The position numbers were made by a program, and so were the translations under genes. A stretch of 39,539 nucleotides of DNA. Origin: Ignavibacteriaceae bacterium (GTDB lineage: Bacteria; Bacteroidota; Ignavibacteria; Ignavibacteriales; Ignavibacteriaceae). Where the stretch lies: assembly GCA_031292455.1 (NCBI GenBank), contig JARLHC010000025.1:1-39539 (forward strand), given 5' to 3'. Positions 26,091 to 39,539 of the stretch are shown here, in pieces. The notes beneath the pieces were generated by a model. That model did not search any database, had not been told where the DNA came from, and saw only the letters and a program-made list of their open reading frames with translations. The stretch's first letter is position 1. Every line of letters starts with the position of its first letter.

Positions 26091-26464
26091 ATTAAGTCTC
26101 CATTATAATTTATTTTAAGTTAGACAATTATATATAATCTCAAGTTTAATCACTATAGTATAATATCTCAACTTTCTTCATAGATATCTCAAAATGTCTT
26201 CTTTTTAATCATTATTACCTTCTTTTTGTTCTATTCCTATGCATATTCGGCATATCCTATTGAAATTAACCTCCCATTCCAGCTCCCCTATTCTCAAACA
26301 AACCATAGATAATTCTGTGGATAGCTATCTTATTCAGTATAAATTATTTATGATCATTCTCAACCAATATTTTCCGTTAAGTAGACTTGATTTATGCTGT
26401 AATCACTTTCATAACCCGTTATGATTTATTATTTTTATTGAAACAATCACAAAAGATTATTACC
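26091..26464. other. Divergent intergenic region with the promoters of the Spy-like gene and the purine locus
   Basis: These 374 bases are A/T-rich and hold no convincing gene. They separate a minus-strand gene from the first gene of the molybdenum-hydroxylase locus, so both promoters should lie here. I could not identify matching -33 TTTG and -7 TAnnTTTG boxes. Open frames in this stretch (for example from 26239) have no family features. Confidence 0.5.
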
Positions 26465-27904
26465 GTGTTTAAGAAGATATCCTTTATTTGTAATGATAAA
26501 GAAATCATTACCGAAATTCACCCTGCAACTACTTTACTGGATTTCCTGCGCAAAAACCTCTCCCTTACCGGAACTAAAGAAGGCTGCCGTGAAGGGGATT
26601 GCGGTGCCTGTACTATTCTTGTTGGCGAATTATTAGGAGATGAAGTAGTATATAAAACAATGAATTCCTGTCTTTTACCAATTGGTTCCGTAATTGGTAA
26701 ACATGTGGTTTCTATCGAAGGCCTGAATATGGAAGGACTCTCCCCGGTCCAGATGGCTATGGTCGAAGAGGGAGGTACTCAATGTGGTTTCTGTACCCCC
26801 GGATTCATTATCTCACTGTCAGCTTATTTCCTTACTCACAAAACTTATAATCCTGAAGAAGCTGTTGAGTCTCTTGATGGAAATATATGCAGATGTACTG
26901 GACATACCGCCATTAAAAGAGCTGCTGCAAGATCAGTAGACTTCTTTAATGAGCATAAAGGTGAATCTCTCGTTTCTGCCGGTCTGCTTCCTCCATATTT
27001 CTCTGATATTCCCGCAAGATTAAAAACTTTAGCTGGTCAAATTCATTCAAACGGTGGGGAAGATATTCTCCCGCGTTATCAGGTCGGCGGCGGAACTGAT
27101 CTGTTCGTTCAAAAATGGGAAGATCTTTATCGGTCTGATGTCGGCTTTATTAATAATAAGCAGCATGATCAGAAAATTACTATTTCTGGCCGGGAGTGTA
27201 TTATAAACGCTTCTGCTACTGTTACCGATATCATGAATTCGGACATCCTTCTAAAGTACTTTCCCGGTATTAAAAGTTATTTTAGTCTCTTTGGCTCTCT
27301 CCCCATAAGGAATAGGGCAACTCTCGGAGGAAATATCGTTAACGCTTCTCCGATTGCCGATATGACAAACTTCTTCCTTGCGCTCAATTCTAAAATACTA
27401 TTGGTCAGTGCCAACTCTATGACATCTAAGAAAAAGAATGGATCACGCGGTAGGGAAGTTTATCTGAAAGATTTCTACCTTGGTTATAAAACATTGGATA
27501 AAAAACCGGATGAGATAATCAAATCTCTCTCCTTTAAATTACCTTCACCCGATTCTGTGTTCTCCTATGAAAAGGTTTCCAGGAGAACCTATCTTGATAT
27601 AGCAAGCGTTAATACATCCTTCTTTGTGGAAATTAAAAATAATATTATTAATGAAATACATATTTCCGCAGGAGGTGTCGCTCCGGTTCCCCTATATCTT
27701 ATCAAGACAAGGGAATTCCTGCTGAATAAAAAGATTGAACCCGGTATTATAGCCGAAGCTGCCCGCATAGCTGTTTCAGAATCTTCCCCTATTACTGATG
27801 CACGCGGTTCTGTCATGTATAAAAAACTTCTTCTGCGTCAATTGATATTTGCCCATTTCCTTAAGCTCTTTCCCCGTATGGTAAATTTCGAGGAGTTGAT
27901 ATGA
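26465..27904 (+). CDS. Xanthine dehydrogenase small subunit (2Fe-2S and FAD domains fused)
   Basis: I favour GTG 26465 because the ferredoxin fold begins right after it (FKKISFICNDKEIITEI); an ATG at 26387 and a TTG at 26438 are in frame but add a non-homologous leader. The 479-residue protein has a plant-type 2Fe-2S cluster (C41, C46, C49, C69; GCREGDCGACTIL) and a second cluster domain (QCGFCTPGF, GNICRCTGH). An FAD domain follows with YQVGGGTDLFVQ and PIRNRATLGGNIVNASPIADM, then a CO-dehydrogenase flavoprotein C-terminal domain. It passes electrons from the molybdenum subunit to NAD+ or another acceptor. It overlaps the next gene by ATGA, indicating coupled synthesis of the two subunits. 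Substrate is likely xanthine or a related purine by family and neighbours. Confidence 0.92.
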   Translation: MFKKISFICNDKEIITEIHPATTLLDFLRKNLSLTGTKEGCREGDCGACTILVGELLGDEVVYKTMNSCLLPIGSVIGKHVVSIEGLNMEGLSPVQMAMVEEGGTQCGFCTPGFIISLSAYFLTHKTYNPEEAVESLDGNICRCTGHTAIKRAAARSVDFFNEHKGESLVSAGLLPPYFSDIPARLKTLAGQIHSNGGEDILPRYQVGGGTDLFVQKWEDLYRSDVGFINNKQHDQKITISGRECIINASATVTDIMNSDILLKYFPGIKSYFSLFGSLPIRNRATLGGNIVNASPIADMTNFFLALNSKILLVSANSMTSKKKNGSRGREVYLKDFYLGYKTLDKKPDEIIKSLSFKLPSPDSVFSYEKVSRRTYLDIASVNTSFFVEIKNNIINEIHISAGGVAPVPLYLIKTREFLLNKKIEPGIIAEAARIAVSESSPITDARGSVMYKKLLLRQLIFAHFLKLFPRMVNFEELI

Positions 27905-30171
27905 AAAATTATGATTATGAAAAACATGTAAAAGGCGAATCACAATTCGTTGATGATCTCCTCACCCCCGCAGGACTCCTTTATGTACATATTTTTACGG
28001 CATCGGTTGCACATGCTGAAATATTAAAGCTCGATTATTCTGAAGCCCTTAAATCCCGTGGTGTTGTCGATATTATTACTGCTCAGAATATCCCTGGCGA
28101 AAACCAGATAGGCGGAATTATTCAGGATGAACCTCTGCTCGCAGATAATGAAGTCCATTTTATCGGCCAGCCTGTTGCTATTGTTGTCGCTGATACTGTC
28201 CTGCATGCTAAAGAAGCTTCCGGAAAAATAATAATTGAATATAAAAATCTTCCTGTTATAACCGACCCTCGTTTAGCTTTTCAAAAGGGAGAACTGATTA
28301 TGCCTCCGCGCCTCTTTGCGTGCGGCGATGTCGATAATACTTGGTCTCTCTGTGATCATATTATAGAAGGTACCACTGAATCTGGCGGACAGGAACATCT
28401 CTATCTCGAAACTCAGGGCGCATTCGCATACCCCCTCGAATCAGGAGGTATTAAAATCGTTTCCTCTACCCAGGGCCCCACTCAGGTTCAAAGAGCTGCT
28501 GCTAAAGTGCTCGGATTCCCCATGAATAAAGTCGAGGTTGACGTTACTCGTATCGGTGGTGGATTTGGAGGTAAGGAAGATCAGGCAAATGCTTGGGGTG
28601 CCATAGCCGCTCTCGCTGCCTGGAAAGTAAAAAAACCGGTAAAGGTTATACTCTCCCGGCAGGATGATATGAGAATGACAGGCAAACGCCACCCCTATTC
28701 ATCAGATTTTAAGATCGGCCTCTCTAAGGAAGGAAAAATACTCGCTTATCAGGCTACATTTTACCAGAATGCCGGCGCGGCCGCAGATCTGTCCCCGGCA
28801 GTCCTCGACAGAACTTTATTCCATGCTGTTAATAGCTACTATATTCCTAATGTAAGCGTAACAGCAATTTCCTGTAAAACTAATCTCCCCCCTAATACTG
28901 CCTTTAGAGGTTTCGGCGGCCCTCAGGGTATGTTCGTAATAGAAGCGGCTTTATTCAAAGCTGCTGAAATAATGGGCGTAGATTACCATAAACTTCAGGA
29001 ATTAAATCTTATGGAAGAGGGAGATTCATTCCACTATGGCCAGAAAATTGAAAACAGCACTATAAAACGTTGTTGGGATGAAACTATTAAGAAATATGAT
29101 GTGGATTCAATTCAAAAAAGAGTTGATGAATTCAATAAGAATAATAAATTATATAAAAAAGGATTCGCTCTGATGCCTGTTTGTTTTGGCATCTCCTTTA
29201 CTAACACCTTTATGAATCAGGCAAGCGCTCTGGTCCATGTCTTTTCCGATGGCAGTATTAGTGTAAGTACCGGTGCCATTGAAATGGGGCAGGGGGTTAA
29301 TATGAAAATACGGCAAACCGTTGCTTCTGTTTTCTCTGTTAATATCGATCGTGTGAAAATTGAAACTACAAATACTACAAGGACTGCAAACACTTCCCCT
29401 ACTGCCGCTAGTGCTGGCGCGGATATGAACGGTAAAGCAGCTGAGATTGCTAGCCGTAATATTCTTGATAAATTGATTAAGGTTGCTTGCGATAAATTAA
29501 ATACTAAAGATCCCTCCCTTATTACCCTTAAGAACGAAACAGTATTCTGCAATAATAAACCGGAACTTTCCTGGAATCAGCTTGTTCAGGTTGCATTTAA
29601 TACAAGAACTAACCTGTCCTCTCATGCACAGTATGCAGTACCGGATATTTACTTTGATAAAGATACTAATACTGGTAAACCATTTGCCTATTATGCAATC
29701 GGCTCTGCTGTTGTTGAGGTAACACTCGACTGCCTGCGAGGGCTGTATGAATTTGATTCTGTAAAAGTAGTTCACGATTATGGCAAATCATTTAGCTATG
29801 TTGTCGATAGAGGACAGACTGAAGGCGCCATTATGCAGGGACTCGGATGGATGACTATCGAAGAGGTCATTTATAATGAAAATGGTAAGCTTTTAACTGA
29901 TGCCCTTTCTACTTATAAAGTACCGGATATTCATTTTACCCCTAAGGAAATTAAGATTGAATTTCTTGAGACTGTAGAAAATGGAGCTGGACTTAAGGGC
30001 TCTAAAGCTATTGGCGAACCTCCGCTTATGTATGGTATCGCAGCTTTCTTTGCTATTCTTAATGCTATGAAAGCTTTTAATCCTCATAAGGAATATAAAT
30101 TATCCTCGCCTATTACTCCTGAAAAAGTATTGTGCGAGATGTATTCCGAAAATGTTACCGTTCCTGCTTGA
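27901..30171 (+). CDS. Xanthine dehydrogenase molybdenum-binding subunit
   Basis: The 756-residue protein has the hallmarks of the large subunit: a hammerhead domain (KGESQFVDDLLTPAGLLYVH, ARAVVDI-like RGVVDIITAQNIPG), GGGFGGKEDQ at about residues 218-227, RGFGGPQGMF at about 336, GAIEMGQGVNMKIRQ, and the catalytic Glu 706 in GSKAIGEPPLMYG. It binds molybdopterin cytosine dinucleotide or a related cofactor and hydroxylates a purine ring carbon. The Glu acts as base, and an equatorial sulfido ligand is required for activity. The start overlaps the small-subunit stop. The arrangement matches the bipartite bacterial XdhA/XdhB form, most like purine-oxidising enzymes. Sulfuration and cofactor insertion would need XdhC, which is encoded on the other strand near the right edge. 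Confidence 0.93.
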   Translation: MKNYDYEKHVKGESQFVDDLLTPAGLLYVHIFTASVAHAEILKLDYSEALKSRGVVDIITAQNIPGENQIGGIIQDEPLLADNEVHFIGQPVAIVVADTVLHAKEASGKIIIEYKNLPVITDPRLAFQKGELIMPPRLFACGDVDNTWSLCDHIIEGTTESGGQEHLYLETQGAFAYPLESGGIKIVSSTQGPTQVQRAAAKVLGFPMNKVEVDVTRIGGGFGGKEDQANAWGAIAALAAWKVKKPVKVILSRQDDMRMTGKRHPYSSDFKIGLSKEGKILAYQATFYQNAGAAADLSPAVLDRTLFHAVNSYYIPNVSVTAISCKTNLPPNTAFRGFGGPQGMFVIEAALFKAAEIMGVDYHKLQELNLMEEGDSFHYGQKIENSTIKRCWDETIKKYDVDSIQKRVDEFNKNNKLYKKGFALMPVCFGISFTNTFMNQASALVHVFSDGSISVSTGAIEMGQGVNMKIRQTVASVFSVNIDRVKIETTNTTRTANTSPTAASAGADMNGKAAEIASRNILDKLIKVACDKLNTKDPSLITLKNETVFCNNKPELSWNQLVQVAFNTRTNLSSHAQYAVPDIYFDKDTNTGKPFAYYAIGSAVVEVTLDCLRGLYEFDSVKVVHDYGKSFSYVVDRGQTEGAIMQGLGWMTIEEVIYNENGKLLTDALSTYKVPDIHFTPKEIKIEFLETVENGAGLKGSKAIGEPPLMYGIAAFFAILNAMKAFNPHKEYKLSSPITPEKVLCEMYSENVTVPA

Positions 30172-30292: not shown

Positions 30293-31666
30293 ATGGTTCT
30301 ACTTGAAAATTGTTTTTATATCGCTTCTTTTGATGAAAATAAGACTTATTCCTCTAAAGATATCTTAATTAATGGGAATAGGATCCATGCTATCGGCGTT
30401 AATCTCCGTAAACAGATAAATGAAAAAGAAGATAGAATAATTGACTGTTCTGAATGTGTGGTCATCCCTGGTCTCGTAAATACACACCATCATTTCTATC
30501 AGACTCTTACCAGAAACTTGCCCGCAGTTCAAAATGCTAAGCTTTTCGATTGGCTGATCTATCTATATGATATTTGGAAAAATATCGATGAGGATGCTGT
30601 ATATTATTCCTCACTTCTCGCTATGGGTGAACTGCTTAAAACTGGTTGCACTCTTTCAACCGATCACCATTATGTCTTCCCTCAGAATGTCAGCGGAGAT
30701 TTAATTGGAATTCAGTTCGAAGCAGCATCTAAATTAGGGATGCGCTTTTCTCCTTCAAGAGGATCAATGTCCCTCAGTAAAAAAAATGGAGGTCTCCCTC
30801 CTGATTCCGTTGTCCAGACAGAAGATAAAATTCTGAAAGATAGCATCCGTTTGATTCAGCTCTATCATAATCCTTCAGAAGATTCAATGCGTAAGATCGT
30901 CCTTGCTCCTTGCTCTCCCTTTTCTGTTACTCCTGAAAACTTGAGGGATACTGCAAAGCTGGCTCGTGAATATGGTGTCCGCCTTCACACTCACCTTGCC
31001 GAAACTTTGGATGAGGAAGAGTTTTGCAGATCAAAAACAGGGAAGAATCCCCTTGCTTTAATGGAAGAAGTTGGGTTTATTGGGGAAGATGTATTCTATG
31101 CTCATGGTATTCACTTTAATGATGATGAACTCAGGGTTCTTGCACAAACTAAAACTTCTGTAGCTCATTGCCCTTCCTCTAATATGCGCCTCGGGTCCGG
31201 TATCGCAAGAGTTAAAGAGATGAAGGAGTTGGGAATAAATGTCGGTATCGGTGTAGATGGCTCGGCTTCTAATGATTGTTCCGATATTCTGGGTGAAGTT
31301 AGAAATGCAATGCTACTACAAAGAATCAGATATGGTGCTGGAGCTCTTACCGCTGAAGGTGCGTTCGATCTGTGCATTAAAGGCGGAGCTAAAATCCTTA
31401 ATTATGATAAGACCGGCACAATTAAAGAAGGATTTTTAGCAGATGTTGCATTGTTCAATATAAATAAACTTGAATATACTGGCTCTCTTTCCGATCCTCT
31501 TGCTGCTTTGATCTTTACAGGTATAAGCCATCAGGCCGAATATACTATTGTAAATGGAAAAGTTGTTGTTGAAAAAGGTAAGCTTGTCGGGGAAGATGAA
31601 GAAGTTATTATTAAACATGGTAATGAAATAGCTGACCGTCTCCTTAAAAGCTATTCTAAAAGTTAA
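30293..31666 (+). CDS. 8-oxoguanine deaminase-like amidohydrolase (TRZ/ATZ family)
   Basis: The 457-residue amidohydrolase has the metal site of the family: His 65 and His 67 in VNTHHHFYQTL, LHTHLAETLDEEE, AHGIHFNDDEL and GVDGSASND. The segment LTRNLPAVQNAKLFDWLIYL with GCTLSTDHHYVFP closely follows 8-oxoguanine deaminases, which convert 8-oxoguanine to urate and ammonia; related members act on guanine or on triazines. AGGA precedes the ATG. The protein is cytoplasmic, without signal peptide. Being placed between two molybdenum hydroxylases, it fits purine salvage or breakdown converging on urate. Guanine or isoxanthopterin deamination remains possible, since the specificity residues cannot be tested here. 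Confidence 0.85.
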   Translation: MVLLENCFYIASFDENKTYSSKDILINGNRIHAIGVNLRKQINEKEDRIIDCSECVVIPGLVNTHHHFYQTLTRNLPAVQNAKLFDWLIYLYDIWKNIDEDAVYYSSLLAMGELLKTGCTLSTDHHYVFPQNVSGDLIGIQFEAASKLGMRFSPSRGSMSLSKKNGGLPPDSVVQTEDKILKDSIRLIQLYHNPSEDSMRKIVLAPCSPFSVTPENLRDTAKLAREYGVRLHTHLAETLDEEEFCRSKTGKNPLALMEEVGFIGEDVFYAHGIHFNDDELRVLAQTKTSVAHCPSSNMRLGSGIARVKEMKELGINVGIGVDGSASNDCSDILGEVRNAMLLQRIRYGAGALTAEGAFDLCIKGGAKILNYDKTGTIKEGFLADVALFNINKLEYTGSLSDPLAALIFTGISHQAEYTIVNGKVVVEKGKLVGEDEEVIIKHGNEIADRLLKSYSKS

Positions 31667-31701: not shown

Positions 31702-32523
31702 ATGATGTCTCATGATCTTCAATGGTATTATCCTGAAAAGATATCGGAAGCTTTAAAACTTATAAAGAAAGATGGAATAATCCTGCATGCGGGAGGAACA
31801 AGAATTCTTAAAACTGAAGCCCGCCATCTGAAAGGACTCGTTGATATTAGCCGCCTTAAATTAAATTATATCCGTAAAGAAGGGAAAAATATTATAATCG
31901 GTTCCGGTTCTACCTTTACAGATGTAATTAATTATTGCAGAAAAACTAATAGCCTGTCTGGTCTGTGCATGGCTCTCTCTGAAGCAGCTTCTACTCCCTT
32001 AAGAAACAGAATGACTATTGGCGGTTCACTTAAAGATTTCCCTGTCTGGTCAAGCCTTTATTCCCCCCTTATCGCTCTTAATGCTCAGGTAGAACTGGTA
32101 GGAGTTAAAGAGGCCTACTCCGTTGAAGACTATGTCAGGAAAAACATAATTAAAACTAAGCATATTATAAGCCAGATTGTTATTAAGGATGAGAAGGATG
32201 TTATCTGCCATGTTCGCAGGTTTAATATTGTTAGGTTTGAATATCCGATATTCAATTTAGCGGTAGCTCTAAAAGTGAAAAATAATATTGTGGTTGATGC
32301 AAGAGTTGTAATCACTGGCGTTACAGGAAGATTTCATCGCTTCAAATCTTCTGAAAAAGCATTAATTGGCAATGCACTGACCGACGATATAATTACAAAA
32401 AGCAGTGAATATTTTACGCCTAAATTCCACTCCGATTATAAGTATTCCCCTGAATACAGGGAACATGTAGCTAAAGTATATTATAATGATATTGTCAATG
32501 AATTGAAAAAGGAAATGAAATGA
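31702..32523 (+). CDS. Molybdenum hydroxylase FAD-binding (medium) subunit
   Basis: The 273-residue protein has the FAD PP-loop region of CoxM/XdhB-type flavoproteins: DLQWYYPEKISEALKLI at the start, ILHAGGTRILK, IIIGSGSTFTDVINYC and ASTPLRNRMTIGGSLKDF. The first glycine loop is shortened and altered (AGGTRI rather than AGGTDL), and the usual IGGNI is IGGSL, so FAD contacts may differ. A C-terminal CO-dehydrogenase flavoprotein domain follows. AGGA is found upstream; ATG 31702 or the adjacent ATG 31705 could be used. It overlaps the iron-sulfur subunit gene by four bases. It is the middle electron carrier of a three-subunit enzyme. Confidence 0.87.
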   Translation: MMSHDLQWYYPEKISEALKLIKKDGIILHAGGTRILKTEARHLKGLVDISRLKLNYIRKEGKNIIIGSGSTFTDVINYCRKTNSLSGLCMALSEAASTPLRNRMTIGGSLKDFPVWSSLYSPLIALNAQVELVGVKEAYSVEDYVRKNIIKTKHIISQIVIKDEKDVICHVRRFNIVRFEYPIFNLAVALKVKNNIVVDARVVITGVTGRFHRFKSSEKALIGNALTDDIITKSSEYFTPKFHSDYKYSPEYREHVAKVYYNDIVNELKKEMK

Positions 32524-32993
32524 GACAAGTATTCAAAATAAATTCCAAAGAAAAAGAACTTCAACTTAACCCGGGCGATACTCTTCTTAAGGCATTGAGG
32601 GATAATGGGTTTACTGAAGTGAAATGCGGATGCAGTGAAGGTGAATGCGGTGCTTGTCTCGTACTACTTGAGGATATGCCTGTTAATTCATGCCAGGTTT
32701 TTGCTTTGAGCGTAAAGGATAAGGAAATTAAAACTGTAAAAGGAATAGGGACTCTTCATTATCCCCATATGTTACAAAAAGCTTTTGTGGATGCCGGTGC
32801 AGATCAATGCGGCTTCTGCACTCCGGGTATGGTTATAGCTTCTTATGCCTTGCTCCGGAAGAATCCAAACCCTTCAAAGCAGGAAATTACAGAAGCTCTT
32901 GATGGAAATCTGTGTCGTTGTACCGGATATGTAAAAATTGTTCAGGCAGTCGAAAATGCAGCTAAAGAATTGAGTGATTCAGCTAAATTATAA
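32520..32993 (+). CDS. Molybdenum hydroxylase 2Fe-2S (small) subunit
   Basis: The 157-residue protein carries both iron-sulfur domains: the plant-type cluster with C38, C43, C46 and C58 (CSEGECGACLVLLEDMPVNSC), with an extra Cys at 36, and the helical-domain cluster with QCGFCTPGMV and DGNLCRCTGY. It has normal CoxS length. The ATG overlaps the FAD-subunit stop (ATGA) and has AAGGA upstream. It transfers electrons between the molybdenum site and FAD. Its large-subunit partner is presumably the gene 340 bases downstream, after a structured intergenic element. Confidence 0.92.
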   Translation: MRQVFKINSKEKELQLNPGDTLLKALRDNGFTEVKCGCSEGECGACLVLLEDMPVNSCQVFALSVKDKEIKTVKGIGTLHYPHMLQKAFVDAGADQCGFCTPGMVIASYALLRKNPNPSKQEITEALDGNLCRCTGYVKIVQAVENAAKELSDSAKL

Positions 32994-33332: not shown

Positions 33333-35663
33333 ATGTCTTTTAAATATGTAAACAAAAACGAAGGAAAAATTGATGGCCTGTCTTTAGCCACAGGTGAGGA
33401 AAAGTATACGGATGATTATAACGCAAAAGATGTCCTCCATATATCAGTCCTTCATTCGGGATATGCTCACGCTGAAATTGAAGATGTCGATGACTCGGCT
33501 GCAAGAAAAATGAAAGGAGTTGTAGAGATCCTTTCCTGTAAAAATGTTAAAAGAATATTATATACTACTGCTGGACAGGGATTTCCTGAACCTTCACCCT
33601 ATGATTCTGCACTGTTTAATAATATTATGAGATTTGTCGGTGATAATGTCTGCGCTGTCGCTGCCGAATCAAAAGAAATTGCAGACGAAGCATTAAAGAA
33701 AATAAAAGTGAAATTTAAGGAGCTAACTCCTATCCTGGATCTTAGAGAGTCCGAAAACTCTCCTGTAAAGATTCATGATAATGACGGATCATTCCCAAGA
33801 ATCCCTGTGTTTTATGATGCTGAGAAAAATATTGCATCAAAGGTTGAAGCTGAAGTTGGAAATTTTGAGGTGGCATATAAGTCTTCTTCTAAGAAAATAG
33901 AAAATGAATTCTATGCACCCTATGCTTCCCATTGTGCAATTGAACCCCACGCTTCCTTTGCTTACTATGACCTGCGCGGTAGGATCGTCATCGTTACAAC
34001 AACTCAGGTCCCTTTCCATGTAAGAAGAATTGTGGCCAGATTATTGGAAATTCCTGTATCTCAAATCCGGGTTATTAAACCAAGAATTGGTGGGGGATTT
34101 GGAGGTAAACAGGAAATATTACTTGAACCGATTGCTGCTATGATGACATTAAGAACTAAACGTCCCTGCAAATTGGTATATACTAGAAAAGAAGTTTTCA
34201 AATCTACTAGAGCAAGACATGAGTATGTAACAAATTTCAGGGTGGGCTATGAACCCGATGGTAAAATAAATGCATTCCACCTCGACGCTCTTGAGAATTC
34301 AGGTGGCTATGGCTCTCATTCTTTGACTGTATTATCTAATGCAGGTTCTAAAACTCTTCCTTTATTGAATAAAATTGAGAATGTAAAATTCACTGGCAAA
34401 GGCGTATATACAAATCTTCCATGCGGCGGGGCTTATAGGGGCTATGGCGCTACGGAAGCATATTTCGGATTTGGACAGATTGTGGATATGATTTGTAATG
34501 ATACAGGCAATGATATTATCGAATATTATAAGAAATGGACCATTAAATCTGGTGAGACTTCCCCCATATTCCAGGCTCTTGGAGAAGGGAAGGAGGGTGT
34601 TGCAATGAGTATCGGATCCTGTGCTCTTGCCGAATGTATAGATGAAGGCGCGAAATTATCCGGTTGGTATGAAAAGAAAAAACTCTATTCCCCTGATTCA
34701 GAAATTAACAAAGGTAGATTTAAAAAGGGAATTGGAATGGTTGCTATGATGCAGGGCTCCGCTATCCCTGAAATAGATATGGCTTCCGCCTATATAAAGA
34801 TGAACGAAGATGGCGCATTTAACCTTTCTGTCGGAGCTACTGACCTTGGAACTGGATCTGATACCGTTCTTGCACAGATCGCATCAGAAGTTCTCGATAC
34901 TCCAGTTGATAAATTTGTCGTTTATTCATCGGATACTGACCATACTCCGTTTGATGTTGGTGCTTATGCTTCATCAACTACATATCTATCTGGCCAGGCA
35001 GTAAAGAAAGTTGCCGAGAAAGTTCGGGATCAGATCCTGCAGGTAGGCGCTGAAATTCTTGGTGTTGATATTAATAATGTTGAAATCAATAATAGTAAAG
35101 TAGCTCTGAAGAATGGTAAAGAGGATGTCTCCTATGCTGAAATTTGTCAGTATAGCTTGTACCAGAAAAATCAATTCCAGATTCAGGCAACTGCTTCCCA
35201 TGTCTCTCCTAAATCTCCTCCTCCTTTTGCCGCTCACTTTATTGAAATTGAGGTAGATACCTTTACTGGCTTGATTAAAATTCTTAATTATGTGGCAACA
35301 GTCGATTGCGGTACAGCTATAAATCCAAGAACTGCAGAAGGACAGGTAGAAGGCGCTATTGTAAATGGACTCGCATATGCTATATTCGAGAATTATTACT
35401 TCTCTAAACATGGTAGAATGCTGAATGATACATTACAAAAAATGGGTATGTATACCGCTTATGATATTCCCCCTATAGTTTGTAAGCTTATAACTTCTTA
35501 TGAAGAATCAGGTCCGTTTGGTGCTAAATCAATTTCTGAGATAAATATAAATGGCGCTTTACCCGGTATAGCAAATGCATTTTATAATGCAACAGGAAAA
35601 AGATTATTTAAGGCTCCCTTCCACCCCGAATATATCCTGGAAGTACTCGGGCCCTTATCTTGA
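33333..35663 (+). CDS. Molybdenum hydroxylase large subunit (xanthine dehydrogenase-type)
   Basis: The 776-residue protein has the hammerhead domain (LATGEEKYTDDYN, LHISVLHSGYAHAEIEDVD), GGGFGGKQE at about 253, GGAYRGYGATEAYFGFGQ at about 365, GATDLGTGSDTVLAQIASE, and a terminal cofactor loop GPFGAKSISEININGALPG with the catalytic Glu 736. The loop differs from the GEPP form in the other large subunit of this window and recalls xanthine dehydrogenases of anaerobes. GGAG stands 5 bases before ATG 33333. It is probably the partner of the FAD and 2Fe-2S subunits at 31702-32993, since no other large subunit follows them. The reaction is hydroxylation of a purine or other N-heterocycle; the exact substrate is unknown. 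Confidence 0.91.
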   Translation: MSFKYVNKNEGKIDGLSLATGEEKYTDDYNAKDVLHISVLHSGYAHAEIEDVDDSAARKMKGVVEILSCKNVKRILYTTAGQGFPEPSPYDSALFNNIMRFVGDNVCAVAAESKEIADEALKKIKVKFKELTPILDLRESENSPVKIHDNDGSFPRIPVFYDAEKNIASKVEAEVGNFEVAYKSSSKKIENEFYAPYASHCAIEPHASFAYYDLRGRIVIVTTTQVPFHVRRIVARLLEIPVSQIRVIKPRIGGGFGGKQEILLEPIAAMMTLRTKRPCKLVYTRKEVFKSTRARHEYVTNFRVGYEPDGKINAFHLDALENSGGYGSHSLTVLSNAGSKTLPLLNKIENVKFTGKGVYTNLPCGGAYRGYGATEAYFGFGQIVDMICNDTGNDIIEYYKKWTIKSGETSPIFQALGEGKEGVAMSIGSCALAECIDEGAKLSGWYEKKKLYSPDSEINKGRFKKGIGMVAMMQGSAIPEIDMASAYIKMNEDGAFNLSVGATDLGTGSDTVLAQIASEVLDTPVDKFVVYSSDTDHTPFDVGAYASSTTYLSGQAVKKVAEKVRDQILQVGAEILGVDINNVEINNSKVALKNGKEDVSYAEICQYSLYQKNQFQIQATASHVSPKSPPPFAAHFIEIEVDTFTGLIKILNYVATVDCGTAINPRTAEGQVEGAIVNGLAYAIFENYYFSKHGRMLNDTLQKMGMYTAYDIPPIVCKLITSYEESGPFGAKSISEININGALPGIANAFYNATGKRLFKAPFHPEYILEVLGPLS

Positions 35664-35701: not shown

Positions 35702-36859
35702 TTATAAAGAAGTACCTACTTTCAACCTTATATTCAGAAATAATGATGTACAGGTAAATTTATTGTACCTGTCTTTTCCGAATATAGCAGTTGGACCAAT
35801 TGCAACAGCACTGAAACTCCAGCTATCAAATATTTTCTGAACGAGAAGATCAAGCACATACTCTGGTTCCCTGATATCACTATGCGGCATTGCATCAAAC
35901 CTGAAATCAAATGTGCTTCCCGCTAAAGATAATTCTCTTCCTGTATATCCAATATGCCATTCATTAAGATATTGTCCGGCATATAATTTCCCTCTTGTTG
36001 ATCCAAGTACGCTTATCGGATACCTGAATTCCCAGTTCATAGAAGAACCATCTATTATTTTTACATGGGGATCTAAAGTATCATATGCCACTCCATTAGC
36101 CCCTCTTAATATCCCTTTATATTTGTCTATTTGAGAAGATGTCGCTTTATTAAATACGTTTGTATAACTAACCTCAATAAAATTACCAAATGGTAAAACA
36201 TAACCTACCTGATATCCCCCTACAGCGTATAAATTGTTATTATGGCTCATAATTTTCATATTGGTCAGTTCGTCCAGGGAACTAAACACCCCTGCCTTAA
36301 CTCCTAGTATGTGAAAATTCGCTTCTATAAAATTAGTTTCAAGAGGACCGGAATATGGTGTACCTAAACCTGCAGAAAGGCCAATATCATTTTTAATTGG
36401 GAAACCGAATCTCTCTCCTCCAAATAGTTGCAGAAAGGGATTGATGTATTGCAGCGTTGAAGAAATTTGAAAAGCAGTTGGTGGTGATACTAATTTTTTT
36501 ATCTTTATTCTTTCGAAAACTCTTGTAAATACACTCCCGTAATTTATGCTTTCACCAAGATTAAGCTTAAATGGATATATCTGTATCTTGGCCCTTGTGT
36601 CCGGCTTGAAAGCAAGAAATGGATATATTACCCCTTTAATGGATAAAGTTTGATTATTCTGATCTCTGAGATCGGCTATTATTTCAGCTTTTGGATCAGG
36701 AGGATCTATAAATACTTCCTGCTGTATATGTATAAATAAACTGTCATCAAGCGGCTCAAGCTGAAAATAATTGATTTGTTCCTCCTGTTGCGCATATGTC
36801 TTGCCAATTGCTAAGAAAATGAACGATAAAACAATTAGTAATAGTCTGTAATTTTTCAT
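35702..36859 (-). CDS. Putative outer-membrane beta-barrel protein, unknown function
   Basis: The 385-residue protein has a clear signal peptide (MKNYRLLLIVLSFIFLAIGKTYA, cleavage before QQEEQ). The mature protein has alternating hydrophobic strands rich in Tyr, Phe and Gly (SINYGSVFTRVFERIKIKKL, NNLYAVGGYQVGYVLPFG, SMNWEFRYPISVLGSTRG, WSFSAVAIGPTAIFG) and ends in a barrel-like strand (TSLFLNIRLKVGTSL), though the last residue is Leu rather than the usual aromatic. I recognise no named family. It stands alone, convergent with the large-subunit gene and separated from the sulfur-carrier operon by 321 bases. A porin-like role in uptake of purines is only a guess from location. Confidence 0.65.
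   Translation of the reverse strand: MKNYRLLLIVLSFIFLAIGKTYAQQEEQINYFQLEPLDDSLFIHIQQEVFIDPPDPKAEIIADLRDQNNQTLSIKGVIYPFLAFKPDTRAKIQIYPFKLNLGESINYGSVFTRVFERIKIKKLVSPPTAFQISSTLQYINPFLQLFGGERFGFPIKNDIGLSAGLGTPYSGPLETNFIEANFHILGVKAGVFSSLDELTNMKIMSHNNNLYAVGGYQVGYVLPFGNFIEVSYTNVFNKATSSQIDKYKGILRGANGVAYDTLDPHVKIIDGSSMNWEFRYPISVLGSTRGKLYAGQYLNEWHIGYTGRELSLAGSTFDFRFDAMPHSDIREPEYVLDLLVQKIFDSWSFSAVAIGPTAIFGKDRYNKFTCTSLFLNIRLKVGTSL
35750..35772 (+). terminator. Possible terminator of the large-subunit transcript, inside the opposing gene
   Basis: ACAGGTA and TACCTGT form a 7-bp stem with a 9-base loop followed by CTTTTCC, about 90 bases after the large-subunit stop. It lies within the 3' coding end of the convergent membrane-protein gene. 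The convergent gap is only 38 bases, so a terminator inside the neighbour is plausible, but the stem is short. Confidence 0.3.
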
Positions 36860-37180: not shown

Positions 37181-37816
37181 TTAGTATATCTTACTGATAA
37201 GATTTACCGCTGCATTAGCTTGATGCCCGGCAGCTATCATTACGCGTGGTGCCATTAAGCCGTTCTTTTCATTCCCTTCATTTTGATTATCCCCGCAAAG
37301 GAATATGTTTGTGCTTAATTTCTTTGTCTTTATGAAGTTAGATGAATAATATCCGGCTAACCCAGATGCAGTAATAAGATACTTCTTGCCAAACCTTACA
37401 TCCCCAAATGCCTTCAATATCATCGACTTCTCGGACACTTTATCAAATGCTTCTATTATTATTGGACACTCGGAATAAATACTAAAAATATTTCTAAGCG
37501 TAAGTTTAATATTATGTTTTTCAATAATAATAAAAGGATTTACACACTTTATAAATTTCCCCAGTGCATCTGTCTTATATTTTCCTATATCTCTAATAAA
37601 AAATTGCTGACGGTTAAGATTAGATGGTTCTACTTTATCAAAATCTGCTATTATAAGTTTCTTTATCCCTATCCTTGCCAAAGCAATTGCAGCATTGGAT
37701 CCCAATCCTCCGCATCCTGCAATACCAACCACTGCTAGCTTAATCTTTTCTTTTATATCCGAAGAATTTCTTTCTGTAATCTGGCTATAAAAGGAAGGAT
37801 CAATTCTTTTCCCCAA
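37181..37816 (-). CDS. ThiF-family sulfur-carrier adenylyltransferase, short form
   Basis: The 211-residue E1-like enzyme starts at TTG, directly after the stop of the sulfur-carrier gene. It has the nucleotide-binding loop GIAGCGGLGSNAAIALARIG, followed by ADFDKVEPSNLNRQQFF with the conserved Arg and Asp of ThiF/MoeB proteins. The end has LCGDNQNEGNEKNGLMAPRV and AAGHQANAAVNLI, the pattern of the short ThiF subgroup of anaerobes that lacks the two zinc CxxC pairs. A Cys in FLCGD is a candidate persulfide or thioester residue. These enzymes adenylate the C-terminal glycine of ThiS/MoaD-type carriers before sulfur transfer. With no thiamine genes visible and XdhC upstream, a role in molybdenum-cofactor or another sulfur pathway is inferred. 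Confidence 0.88.
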   Translation of the reverse strand: MGKRIDPSFYSQITERNSSDIKEKIKLAVVGIAGCGGLGSNAAIALARIGIKKLIIADFDKVEPSNLNRQQFFIRDIGKYKTDALGKFIKCVNPFIIIEKHNIKLTLRNIFSIYSECPIIIEAFDKVSEKSMILKAFGDVRFGKKYLITASGLAGYYSSNFIKTKKLSTNIFLCGDNQNEGNEKNGLMAPRVMIAAGHQANAAVNLISKIY

Positions 37817-38050
37817 TTATCCTCCGCCTGTAGGTAAGAATATCTTAACTGTATCGCCTTCGTTTACTTCAGCACTCTTTCTTACTTCGTTCCCATTAAT
37901 AAATGGAATAATAAAATTCTGATGATCTCTAAGGATCTTTAATTCATTATAAATATCTGATATCGTTGAACCTTCCTGTATCTCAATAAAACTATTGTTA
38001 GCTACTCCTTTAATATGAAGCAGACCGAGCAATTCTATTTTCACTTTCAT
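37817..38050 (-). CDS. ThiS/MoaD-type sulfur carrier protein
   Basis: The 77-residue beta-grasp protein opens with VKIELLGLLHIKG and has IEIQEGSTISDIYNELKI, NGNEVRKSAEVNEGDTVKIF, and a C-terminal PTGGG tail. The terminal di-glycine is what the ThiF-like enzyme would adenylate and convert to a thiocarboxylate. The ATG overlaps the XdhC stop (ATGA) and the stop abuts the ThiF-like TTG start, so carrier and activator are translationally coupled. It could be a ThiS, MoaD or CysO-type carrier; sequence alone does not separate these, and the context points away from ordinary thiamine synthesis. Confidence 0.88.
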   Translation of the reverse strand: MKVKIELLGLLHIKGVANNSFIEIQEGSTISDIYNELKILRDHQNFIIPFINGNEVRKSAEVNEGDTVKIFLPTGGG

Positions 38051-38934
38051 TTTCCTATCTCGGCGTAATTAAGTCTTAAATGAGTCACTTGCTTATCATT
38101 AATAACAGCAAATAGTTCAGCTAATACCGCCAGCGATATATCAACGGGAGTATCGCCCCCTATATCTATTCCTACAGGTGCATATAAATTATCCAAGGAA
38201 ATTTCCTTACCGTACTTTTCCTTTAGAAATGAAACACATTCCTTGACCTTTAATTTCGAACCTATCATTCCTATATACTTAAAACTAGGATAATTATTTA
38301 GCAGATATTCTAGTACGGGAAGATCATATCTGTGAGATTGGGTAACTATAAATACATATCCCTTGTCATCTAACGTATGAGTAAACTGTGCTGGGGGATA
38401 TTCAATCAAATGCTTCTGCGAATAGGATTTTTCAGGAAGTGCATCTAATATCTCTTTCCTGTTATCAAATATTTCAACATAAAATCCGTGCCTCACTGCA
38501 AGATCTGAAACAGCTGCCCCTACGTGACCTGCACCAAATATGTACAATACATTTTGGGCTTTATAAATCTCATAAAACAACTCAACTTCACCGCCGCACC
38601 AGGCGGGAAGGACTATCTTTGTCGTTCCCGGTGAATTAGTCTCTTGTTCCTTTTTAAGATTTATCTTTTCCCCCTGCCCCTTATCATTATCAACTAATTG
38701 GATAATTTCATTATAATAAGCAGTATTACTTTTAATTAACTCTTTACATTTATCTATAGCATGAAATTCAACTGCACCGCCGCCTATTGTTCCGGTCACT
38801 CTCCCTTCTTCACCGACCAGTATCTTAAATCCGGTTTTCCCGGGTGTAGCTCCTCTGGTCCTCGTTATTGTAATCAGAATAGTAGGTCTATTCTCTTTGA
38901 TCCTTTCAGATAGTTTCCGGAATAATTCAAACAT
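38047..38934 (-). CDS. XdhC-family molybdenum hydroxylase maturation factor
   Basis: The 295-residue protein has the two XdhC/CoxI domains: an N-terminal part with TRTRGATPGKTGFKILVG and GTIGGGAVEFHA, and a Rossmann part with LYIFGAGHVGAAVSDLAVRH, FIVTQSHRYDLPVLEYLL, YIGMIGSKLKVKE and APVGIDIGGDTPVDISLAVL. In Rhodobacter, XdhC binds molybdenum cofactor, keeps it while its terminal sulfur is added, and inserts it into xanthine dehydrogenase. It is the natural maturase for one or both hydroxylases encoded at 26465-35663. It starts 1 base after the stop of the PLP enzyme and overlaps the sulfur-carrier gene, so all four share one transcript. Confidence 0.92.
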   Translation of the reverse strand: MFELFRKLSERIKENRPTILITITRTRGATPGKTGFKILVGEEGRVTGTIGGGAVEFHAIDKCKELIKSNTAYYNEIIQLVDNDKGQGEKINLKKEQETNSPGTTKIVLPAWCGGEVELFYEIYKAQNVLYIFGAGHVGAAVSDLAVRHGFYVEIFDNRKEILDALPEKSYSQKHLIEYPPAQFTHTLDDKGYVFIVTQSHRYDLPVLEYLLNNYPSFKYIGMIGSKLKVKECVSFLKEKYGKEISLDNLYAPVGIDIGGDTPVDISLAVLAELFAVINDKQVTHLRLNYAEIGK

Positions 38935-38935
38935 A

Positions 38936-39539
38936 TTAATTTATATCTTTATTAAATTCAATAATAAGTTTGTCTATTTCTGATCCTTGGGCAGCAGTCT
39001 TACTCCAATATTCATCATCGTACCATTGAGCATTTAATTCAGACAGTTCCTTTCCCTGTTGCTCAATCCAGGTAAAATATTTCAGGTTATGAATTCTTTT
39101 CTTAGCATTATAATCAAGTTCAAGCATATCTGCAGTGTTTGCCCCCATAATTGATTTATGGAAAGATATCACTGCATTATCATGCGTAAACTTGCCTTGT
39201 TTATCATTCTCCTCTTTCAATCTTGAGCCGTATAAGTCCATTGAGTCTGTAAGGATTGTGAAAATTACTTTATTCTCATTTAACTCATAATACTTCGCCA
39301 TTTTAATAGCCGAAAGCACATTAGCAATTCCTGATATACCTGCAGTTTTTAGTGTTTCTACAAATTTACTATTCAGTCCGTTGTTTTCAAGATATTTCTT
39401 CCCTTCATCTTCATTGAATAATCGCATAACTTCTATACAATCATTATCATCAATATCTATTACCATATCCATATTTTTAACATTATGTATCCATGGAACA
39501 TGCTTATCTCCAATCCCTTCTATCCTATGCCCGCCAAAC
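38936..39539 (-). CDS. PLP-dependent cysteine-synthase-like enzyme, C-terminal part
   Basis: The frame remains open to the right edge, so this is a partial gene; about 200 C-terminal residues are visible. Upstream of the internal ATG at 39472 the reading continues with GGHRIEGIGDKHVPWIHNVK, resembling the RI.GIGDG.IP segment of cysteine synthase-type fold-II PLP enzymes. Then come VIDIDDNDCIEVMRLFNEDE, GISGIANVLSAIKMAKYY and the unusual tail HNLKYFTWIEQQGKELSELN with AQWYDDEYW. The PLP lysine would be outside the window. The reaction is unknown: cysteine or sulfide chemistry is plausible by family, but threonine-synthase- or lyase-type activity is also possible. It leads the XdhC, carrier and ThiF-like genes with 1-base spacing. 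Confidence 0.78.
   Translation of the reverse strand, partial: FGGHRIEGIGDKHVPWIHNVKNMDMVIDIDDNDCIEVMRLFNEDEGKKYLENNGLNSKFVETLKTAGISGIANVLSAIKMAKYYELNENKVIFTILTDSMDLYGSRLKEENDKQGKFTHDNAVISFHKSIMGANTADMLELDYNAKKRIHNLKYFTWIEQQGKELSELNAQWYDDEYWSKTAAQGSEIDKLIIEFNKDIN

What the first reader, a model, noticed from the sequence alone, without database searches (positions are those of the whole stretch)
37181..39539. PLP enzyme / XdhC / ThiS-MoaD carrier / short ThiF operon: possible dedicated sulfur-delivery system for molybdenum hydroxylases
Four genes are joined by 1-base gaps or ATGA overlaps. XdhC is the known carrier of molybdenum cofactor for sulfuration in Rhodobacter, where a NifS-type desulfurase gives the sulfur. 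Here no desulfurase is visible; instead there is a thiocarboxylate-type carrier, its adenylating enzyme and a cysteine-synthase-like PLP enzyme, next to two molybdenum hydroxylases. A carrier thiocarboxylate could supply sulfur to XdhC-bound cofactor, or to the PLP enzyme as in the CysO-CysM pathway of mycobacteria. The gene order is seen; the mechanism is inference.
Basis: partly seen in the sequence, partly recalled or inferred. Interest (0 to 1): 0.72.

Follow-up and report, generated by a model that had tools for sequence, protein, structure and literature searches.

The report
Sulfur-carrier pair in urate-degradation operon
In an uncultured Ignavibacteriales bacterium, a small sulfur-carrier protein and its activating enzyme sit at the end of an operon for breaking down uric acid without oxygen, where they probably supply sulfur for the molybdenum cofactor of that pathway's enzymes.

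Summary
The four genes are real; the PLP gene is cut by the contig end. A same-genus relative supplies the rest: ygfK | ygeY-ygeW-thrC-like-mocA-PLP-xdhC-carrier-thiF, an anaerobic (reductive) urate-degradation operon. The PLP enzyme goes with that pathway: 22 of 30 relatives read lie beside urate- or hydroxylase-type genes, 28 of 30 without a carrier or ThiF match, which argues against a CysO-CysM reading. The carrier is MoaD-like (LPTGGG tail). The short 'family 2' ThiF keeps its adenylation residues; six XdhC-linked ThiFs form their own clade. The pair occurs in 7 of 80 family genomes, all with the urate PLP gene. The three of them screened have no strong ThiG and no AOR; another, G606, has a separate thiamine operon. 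In 4 of 7 no other ThiS/MoaD was found, and 5 of 7 lack MoaE. Best reading: a dedicated pair for molybdopterin sulfur, like WorX/ThiF or UblB. Against both: two relatives keep XdhC and hydroxylases without the pair, one carries a decayed ThiF, and two pair genomes also have a full MoaA/D/E/MoeB set. No experiment tests it. New variant of a known kind.

The parts
37181..37816 (-). short ThiF-type adenylyltransferase, family 2 (211 aa, TTG start)
   Evidence: NF006395 and TIGR02354 above cut-off; GxGGxG, NLNRQ, K81 and D125 kept; one 100/99 clade with the five other XdhC-linked ThiFs in the tree
37817..38050 (-). MoaD/ThiS-type sulfur carrier, C-terminal Gly-Gly-Gly
   Evidence: Pfam ThiS 34 bits; LPTGGG in all four aligned sequences and in G643, G642 and G606; best solved relative MoaD 1VJK, E 0.011
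38047..38934 (-). XdhC, molybdenum-cofactor chaperone for hydroxylases
   Evidence: Pfam XdhC_C and XdhC_CoxI above cut-off; NF045664 and TIGR02964 matched below their cut-offs
38936..39538 (-). C-terminal 200 aa of a 486-aa cysteine-synthase-like PLP enzyme, 5' part beyond the contig end
   Evidence: 86% identical to L002; full-length relative in L002 has Pfam PALP and cysK/CBS-like NCBIfam hits, all below cut-off
26387..27904 (+). xanthine dehydrogenase Fe-S/FAD subunit
   Evidence: TIGR02963 4.2e-97, below cut-off
27901..30171 (+). xanthine dehydrogenase molybdenum subunit
   Evidence: TIGR02965 796 bits, just below cut-off 849.5
30293..31666 (+). 8-oxoguanine deaminase-like amidohydrolase
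   Evidence: NF006055 590 bits, cut-off 532
31702..32523 (+). FAD subunit of the second molybdenum hydroxylase
   Evidence: Pfam FAD_binding_5
32520..32993 (+). 2Fe-2S subunit of the second molybdenum hydroxylase
   Evidence: Pfam Fer2, Fer2_2
33333..35663 (+). molybdenum subunit of the second hydroxylase (XdhA/XdhD-like)
   Evidence: NF043082 6e-179, TIGR03313 2e-166, both below cut-off

Best explanation
The carrier and ThiF are a dedicated MoaD/MoeB-like pair for the molybdenum cofactor of the urate-pathway hydroxylases. ThiF adenylates the carrier's C-terminal glycine, the carrier becomes a thiocarboxylate, and that sulfur is built into the pterin dithiolene; MocA and XdhC, encoded just upstream, then finish the cofactor and insert it. 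Shown: gene order and its recurrence, intact adenylation residues and GG tail, a clade of its own, and no strong ThiG and no AOR in the three pair genomes screened for them. Inferred: thiocarboxylate formation, the target step and the partner proteins. If it is molybdopterin synthesis, the partner subunit in the genomes without MoaE is unknown.
For: XdhC is followed by the carrier and ThiF in 7 of 7 pair genomes across 3 genera (window and L002; L101, L104; L136, L137, L138; ThiF cut by the contig end in L104 and decayed in L138). All 7 of 80 family genomes with the pair also have the urate PLP gene, which 29 of 80 have (hypergeometric 5e-4, ignoring kinship). ThiG: 37 of 294 class genomes have a strong match (E below 1e-100); none of the 11 ThiF genomes is among them. 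AOR: 12 of 294, none of the three XdhC-pair genomes in that sample. In G289, G257, G642 and G643 no ThiS/MoaD other than the pair's was found; the remaining matches lie in RelA/SpoT proteins; G257's own carrier fell below the threshold there. MoaE is absent in 5 of 7 pair genomes. Within the order the other family-2 ThiFs found are paired with a WorX-type carrier in genomes with a tungsten-type AOR; G226 also has moaA, moaC and moeA in that cluster (Pfam) and no MoaE. Literature: AOR-linked MoaD/MoeB proposed for tungsten-cofactor pterin synthesis (PMC1779556, passages); UblB, which TK2117 adenylates, is needed for the tungsten cofactor of GOR in Thermococcus (PMC11323500, passages).
Against: G000 and G609 also carry MoaE, MoaD, MoaA and MoeB, so they should not need a second pair for molybdopterin. 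G260 and G248 have no MoaE, no ThiS/MoaD match outside RelA/SpoT and no pair, but keep XdhC and hydroxylase genes. G606 has a decayed ThiF with the rest of the operon intact. Outside the family the most similar ThiFs found (L003 50%, L004 49%) lie in thiamine operons, and the tree's weakly supported neighbour of the XdhC clade (89/66) holds a thiamine-linked ThiF, L008; it is not the AOR clade. MoaA/MoaC in the five MoaE-less pair genomes was not searched for genome-wide, and the flanking stretches read show none. No biochemical data.
Confidence: 0.4

Rival explanations
1. One reading: the carrier thiocarboxylate gives the terminal sulfido ligand to XdhC-bound molybdenum cofactor, in place of a NifS-type desulfurase (or of the SelD/YqeB/YqeC selenium genes linked to clostridial and E. 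coli urate clusters).
For: The pair directly follows xdhC in 7 of 7 genomes; mocA lies just before the PLP gene in the six of these whose upstream part is on the contig (all but the window). G000 and G609 have a full MoaA/D/E/MoeB set, so an extra pair would fit a later step. No SelD, YqeB or YqeC model was among the NCBIfam hits of the window and L002 operon proteins scanned; the other operons and the rest of the genomes were not searched for them.
Against: In G260 and G248 XdhC and hydroxylase genes persist without the pair, and G606 has a decayed ThiF. No carrier is known to me to feed XdhC (recall). The AOR-linked ThiF-carrier pairs have no XdhC match in the stretches read.
Confidence: 0.22
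2. The pair serves another sulfur or protein-modifying task (for example tRNA thiolation or ubiquitin-like conjugation) and rides in this operon.
For: Family-2 ThiF genes also occur with neither thiamine nor AOR genes in the stretch read (L010, L015, L016, L018, L020, L021, L023, L024; the ThiH-like match in L018 is HydG). Thermococcus Ubls also serve tRNA thiolation and are conjugated to proteins (PMC11323500, passages).
Against: A fixed place after xdhC in three genera and strict co-occurrence with the urate PLP gene point to the pathway.
Confidence: 0.2
3. Thiamine: the pair is the ThiS/ThiF of thiazole synthesis.
For: The ThiF passes the NCBIfam thiamine ThiF models, though AOR-linked ThiF passes them too. 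Of the relatives L003-L026, seven lie in thi operons (L003, L004, L008, L009, L013, L025, L026), among them the two most similar ones outside the family (L003, L004).
Against: G000, G257 and G289 have no strong ThiG; their ThiG hits are partial and weak (E 7e-6 to 3e-4; the G289 one is over Pfam's cut-off but covers 60 of 247 positions). No thi genes are recognised in the XdhC-pair operons read. G606 has a separate thi operon with its own 66-aa ThiS. G609, G642 and G643 were not screened for ThiG.
Confidence: 0.04
4. CysO-CysM-like cysteine synthesis: the PLP enzyme takes sulfur from the carrier.
For: The PLP enzyme resembles cysteine synthase and CBS and is two genes from the carrier.
Against: Of 83 class genomes with a PLP relative, 72 have no family-2 ThiF at the threshold used. 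In 30 loci read, 22 have urate- or hydroxylase-type neighbours (15 of them ygeW, ygeY or ygfK) and 2 a carrier/ThiF match. No JAB-protease model was among the hits of the window and L002 operon proteins scanned.
Confidence: 0.03

Closest known systems
WorX + ThiF beside tungsten oxidoreductases (PMC13328260, passages); AOR-linked MoaD/MoeB (PMC1779556, passages); aorD and aorE of Aromatoleum (PMC6365974, passages)
   Same: Small carrier, often with a ThiF/MoeB-type protein (in the loci read here a family-2 ThiF), placed beside a pterin-metal enzyme; authors propose a role in pterin cofactor synthesis or W-cofactor maturation
   Different: Here next to xdhC, with mocA nearby, in a molybdenum-hydroxylase/urate operon; ThiF in a separate clade; carrier 77 aa ending LPTGGG, against 69-82-aa frames ending ISGG in the eight AOR-genome pairs; order carrier-ThiF, against ThiF-carrier in those eight. 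The passage on Aromatoleum says that AorD and AorE both resemble MoaD, so that operon may lack a ThiF-type partner
UblB (TK2118) + TK2117 of Thermococcus kodakarensis (PMC11323500, passages)
   Same: Carrier and E1-like enzyme in one operon; the E1 adenylates the carrier; the carrier is needed for the tungsten cofactor of one enzyme
   Different: Archaeal; sequence relation and XdhC linkage not tested here
R. capsulatus XdhC + NifS4 sulfuration (recalled)
   Same: XdhC homologue encoded near XDH-family enzymes
   Different: No desulfurase recognised among the operon genes; a carrier/ThiF pair follows xdhC
Reductive urate cluster of E. coli and C. difficile (PMC12507026, abstract and sections 5 and 9 read, other passages seen)
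   Same: YgfK, YgeY, YgeW-like, a PALP-type PLP enzyme, Mo hydroxylases, amidohydrolases
   Different: 486-aa PLP enzyme plus threonine-synthase-like protein, no YgeX model among the hits shown; carrier/ThiF pair added
CysO-CysM pathway of mycobacteria (recalled)
   Same: Carrier, adenylating enzyme and cysteine-synthase-like enzyme
   Different: PLP gene without a family-2 ThiF in 72 of 83 genomes; no JAB-protease hit among the operon proteins scanned

Membership tests
ThiF family 2 (TIGR02354/NF006395) | full-length match above curated cut-off | tested here: met
   254 bits against 159; 223.7 against 152.2
ThiF family 2 (TIGR02354/NF006395) | adenylation residues kept (GxGGxG, NLNRQ Arg, Lys, Asp; role recalled) | tested here: met
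   invariant in the four XdhC-linked rows; shared with the thiamine, AOR and MoeB types aligned; lost in the G606 copy
Thiamine ThiS-ThiF system | ThiG in the same genome | tested here: not met
   no strong ThiG in G000, G257, G289; G606 has thiG with its own thiS; G609, G642, G643 not screened
AOR-linked WorX/ThiF pair | adjacent AOR/WorL gene | tested here: not met
   G000, G257, G289 not among the 12 genomes with AOR; no AOR match in the stretches read of G606, G642, G643; G609 checked only around the operon and its moa genes
MoaD/MoeB of molybdopterin synthase | MoaE in the same genome | tested here: inconclusive
   present in G000 and G609, absent in G289, G257, G606, G642, G643; [quoted passage not shown]
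MoaD/MoeB of molybdopterin synthase | MoaD-type carrier with C-terminal GG | tested here: inconclusive
   LPTGGG tail met; MoaD rather than ThiS rests on a weak match to 1VJK and a sub-cut-off match to TIGR01687
XdhC-dependent sulfuration system | XdhC with both Pfam domains | tested here: met
   XdhC_C and XdhC_CoxI above cut-off
XdhC-dependent sulfuration system | sulfur transfer to XdhC-bound cofactor | not testable with these tools
   needs biochemistry
CysO-CysM pathway | PLP enzyme linked to the carrier | tested here: not met
   72 of 83 PLP genomes in the class sample lack a family-2 ThiF at E 1e-25
Reductive urate degradation cluster | YgfK, YgeY, YgeW and Mo hydroxylase genes together | tested here: met
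   L002: YgeY above cut-off, YgfK partial (340 of 1012 positions, below cut-off), YgeW-like below cut-off; L101 and L138 with hydroxylases as well; inferred for the window's genome from its same-genus relative
Reductive urate degradation cluster | YgeX diaminopropionate ammonia-lyase | tested here: inconclusive
   486-aa PLP enzyme: no such model among its 9 hits; thrC-like protein: none among the 25 of 42 hits shown

The most novel reading that the evidence does not exclude
The pair is the sulfur-donating half of a molybdopterin synthase that works without MoaE. In Ignavibacteria that have Mo or W pterin enzymes but no MoaE gene, the carrier with its short ThiF (XdhC-linked here, AOR-linked in the sister family) would replace MoaD/MoeB, and an unknown protein, possibly encoded in these operons, would replace MoaE.
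Probability: 0.2. Interest if true: 0.8.

Novelty: new variant of a known kind. Interest (0 to 1): 0.5.

Why it matters
Carrier/ThiF pairs beside pterin-metal enzymes are known for tungsten oxidoreductases, with their function still unproven there. Here a separate clade of the same kind of ThiF, with a carrier, is tied to XdhC and to anaerobic urate breakdown, a pathway worked out in 2025. Several of these genomes show no other MoaD and no MoaE in the searches made, so they offer a simple place to ask how molybdopterin is made without MoaE, a gap noted for acetogens in PMC5039349.

Tried and rejected
Thiamine reading: disfavoured by ThiG and neighbours. CysO-CysM reading: disfavoured by the PLP gene's distribution. 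Pair as helper of an AOR elsewhere in the genome: rejected for G000, G257 and G289. Pair as plain replacement of a missing MoaD/MoeB everywhere: rejected because G000 and G609 have both sets, and G260 and G248 show neither. Looking for moa genes beside the operons: none recognised in 11 stretches of 6 genomes. Plasmid search with the ThiF: 4 records, Cetobacterium (2), Fusobacterium and Haliovirga; three of the four matches are annotated thiF, neighbourhoods not examined. Phylum-wide sample: 5 of 395 genomes with a family-2 ThiF at 1e-30, all in the window's order and already seen. Named-genome scan: of 64 loci with a ThiF relative, only L002 also has an XdhC match; that scan used six peptide patterns of the window protein and favours close relatives. 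An XdhC tree of 12 rows, meant to show whether absence in G260 and G248 is loss, was poorly resolved. No structure predictions were run.

Limits: the ThiS/MoaD search recovered 6 of the 7 known pair carriers and missed G257's, so absences there are soft. The ThiG and AOR screens covered 294 class genomes, not G609, G642, G643 or G606. Weak partial ThiG hits (E 1e-3 to 1e-10, some over Pfam's cut-off) are widespread; I took only the 37 with E below 1e-100 as ThiG. MoaE was searched in 23 chosen genomes. Genomes are mostly draft assemblies, and the decayed ThiF of G606 could in principle be an assembly fault. Cut-offs for 'family-2 ThiF' were 1e-25 and 1e-30. The co-occurrence probabilities ignore kinship. 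Of the 64 loci, L027-L065 were not annotated and not put in the tree; of L002-L026, L013 was left out of the tree, as was the decayed G606 ThiF. Gene labels rest on BLAST to reference proteins, some of which I named by eye; MoaC, MoaA, MoeA, AOR, the WorX-type carrier, the rhodanese and Ppnp labels were afterwards confirmed on single examples, and the RelA/SpoT label on six proteins.
Full report
What is there. The window is an entire contig (C165, 39,539 bases) of a genome of 3.36 Mb in 171 contigs, 97% complete. Its right end carries, on the minus strand, a truncated PLP enzyme, XdhC, a 77-aa GG-tailed carrier and a 211-aa ThiF, with a 1-base gap, a 4-base overlap and no gap between them.

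The rest of the operon. In L002 the PLP enzyme is complete (486 aa). Upstream come a MocA-like cytidylyltransferase, a threonine-synthase-like protein, a YgeW-like carbamoyltransferase and YgeY, with YgfK divergent. These are genes of the reductive urate pathway described for E. coli and C. difficile (PMC12507026; abstract and sections 5 and 9 read). The window itself carries two molybdenum hydroxylases and an 8-oxoguanine deaminase-like gene on the other strand. The four genes of the finding are therefore most likely the tail of an anaerobic purine/urate operon; for the window's own genome this rests on its same-genus relative.

The PLP enzyme. Relatives at E 1e-40 occur in 83 of 294 class genomes. 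Of the 30 loci returned, 22 have urate- or hydroxylase-type neighbours within about 1.5 kb (15 of them ygeW, ygeY or ygfK), 8 have none of the reference genes, and only 2 have a carrier or ThiF match. It resembles cysteine synthase and CBS, but its company suggests a step of the urate pathway, perhaps in place of YgeX (inference).

The pair. A search with four XdhC-linked ThiFs found family-2 ThiF in 11 of 294 class genomes. Three are XdhC-linked (G000, G257, G289). Eight have the ThiF followed by a WorX-type carrier, and all eight genomes carry a tungsten-type AOR gene; it lies within about 2 kb of the pair in seven, and in the eighth, G199, the contig ends near the pair. All 11 genomes have the urate PLP gene (hypergeometric 5.5e-7, ignoring kinship), but no PLP match lies in the stretches read around the eight AOR-type pairs apart from a distant 25% one in L127. 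In the family, 7 of 80 genomes have the pair's ThiF and all 7 have the PLP gene, which 29 of 80 have. The order xdhC-carrier-thiF holds in all seven. In a 39-row ThiF tree the six XdhC-linked ThiFs (one cut by its contig end; the decayed G606 copy left out) form one clade (100/99). Twelve of 13 AOR-linked ThiFs fall in another clade; thiamine-linked ones are scattered. The XdhC clade's weakly supported neighbour (89/66) holds the thiamine-linked L008, and the most similar ThiFs outside the family, L003 and L004, are thiamine-linked too.

Thiamine and AOR. Strong ThiG (E below 1e-100) occurs in 37 of 294 genomes and in none of the 11; their hits are weak and partial. AOR occurs in 12 of 294: all eight AOR-type genomes, none of the three XdhC-linked ones. 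G606, a pair genome outside that sample, has a thiamine operon with its own 66-aa ThiS. G609, G642 and G643 were not screened.

Molybdopterin genes. G000 and G609 have a MoaE-MoaD-MoaA-MoeB cluster besides the pair. In G289, G642 and G643 the pair's carrier is the only ThiS/MoaD match apart from RelA/SpoT proteins; in G257 only RelA/SpoT was matched, the search missing even the pair's carrier. MoaE was found in 6 of 23 genomes searched and in 2 of the 7 pair genomes. The four AOR-type genomes tested (G039, G226, G245, G283) also lack it, although G226 has moaA, moaC and moeA in its AOR cluster. [quoted passage not shown] So molybdenum or tungsten users without a recognisable MoaE seem real, and the pair may be part of how they manage. 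But G260, G248 and G130 also lack MoaE, have hydroxylase genes and have no family-2 ThiF at the thresholds used, so the pair is not the general answer.

Loss and decay. G260, in the same genus as G289 and G257, keeps ygeY to xdhC and the hydroxylase without the pair. G606 keeps an intact carrier, but its ThiF has lost the N-terminal part with the nucleotide-binding motif. The pair is dispensable in some backgrounds.

Mechanism. The adenylation residues and the Gly-Gly tail are kept, so thiocarboxylate formation is likely. Precedents place such carriers in pterin-cofactor sulfur supply: AOR-linked MoaD/MoeB (PMC1779556), aorD/aorE, both described as MoaD-like (PMC6365974), WorX/ThiF (PMC13328260) and, with genetic evidence for the carrier, UblB with TK2117 for the tungsten cofactor of GOR (PMC11323500) (passages read). 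I therefore favour molybdopterin dithiolene sulfur (0.40) over the terminal sulfido ligand through XdhC (0.22). The fixed place next to xdhC, and the full Moa set in G000 and G609, keep the second option open.

Literature on this context. In the listings of searches I saw no paper describing a carrier/ThiF pair in an XdhC or urate operon; six of these listings were complete or nearly so for narrow terms or capped at 10 to 20 of up to 259 papers, and the library holds open-licence papers only. Clostridial regulons list yqeC-ygfJ-yqeB-xdhC, and aor-moaD separately (PMC6615313, passage). The main texts of PMC2276186 and PMC11448449, on the selenium variant, contain neither ThiF nor MoaD.

Noticed in passing
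G260, G248, G289, G606, G643, G130 (L103, L105, L101, L138, L192, L156): Genomes with molybdenum hydroxylase genes but no MoaE match; how they make molybdopterin is unclear.
   Followed up: partly
L138 8812-9282 (G606): ThiF copy lacking its N-terminal nucleotide-binding part while the carrier gene and the rest of the operon are intact: a decaying gene, or an assembly fault.
   Followed up: partly
L122 7336-7740 and L123 9442-9822: A rhodanese-domain protein (Pfam) directly after the ThiF-WorX pair near AOR in G039 and G283; none recognised in the XdhC-linked operons.
   Followed up: partly
L002 3533-4753 and 5412-6872: Two PALP-type PLP enzymes in one urate operon and no YgeX model among the hits shown; one may be the diaminopropionate lyase.
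   Followed up: no
L010 8527-8811, L015, L020: Family-2 ThiF directly followed by a Ppnp nucleoside phosphorylase (Pfam for L010; similar proteins by eye in L015 and L020) in Elusimicrobia and Aminicenantes; a further, unexplained context.
   Followed up: partly
window 35702-36859: 385-aa secreted-looking (by eye) protein of unknown function between the convergent hydroxylase and xdhC-thiF operons.
   Followed up: no
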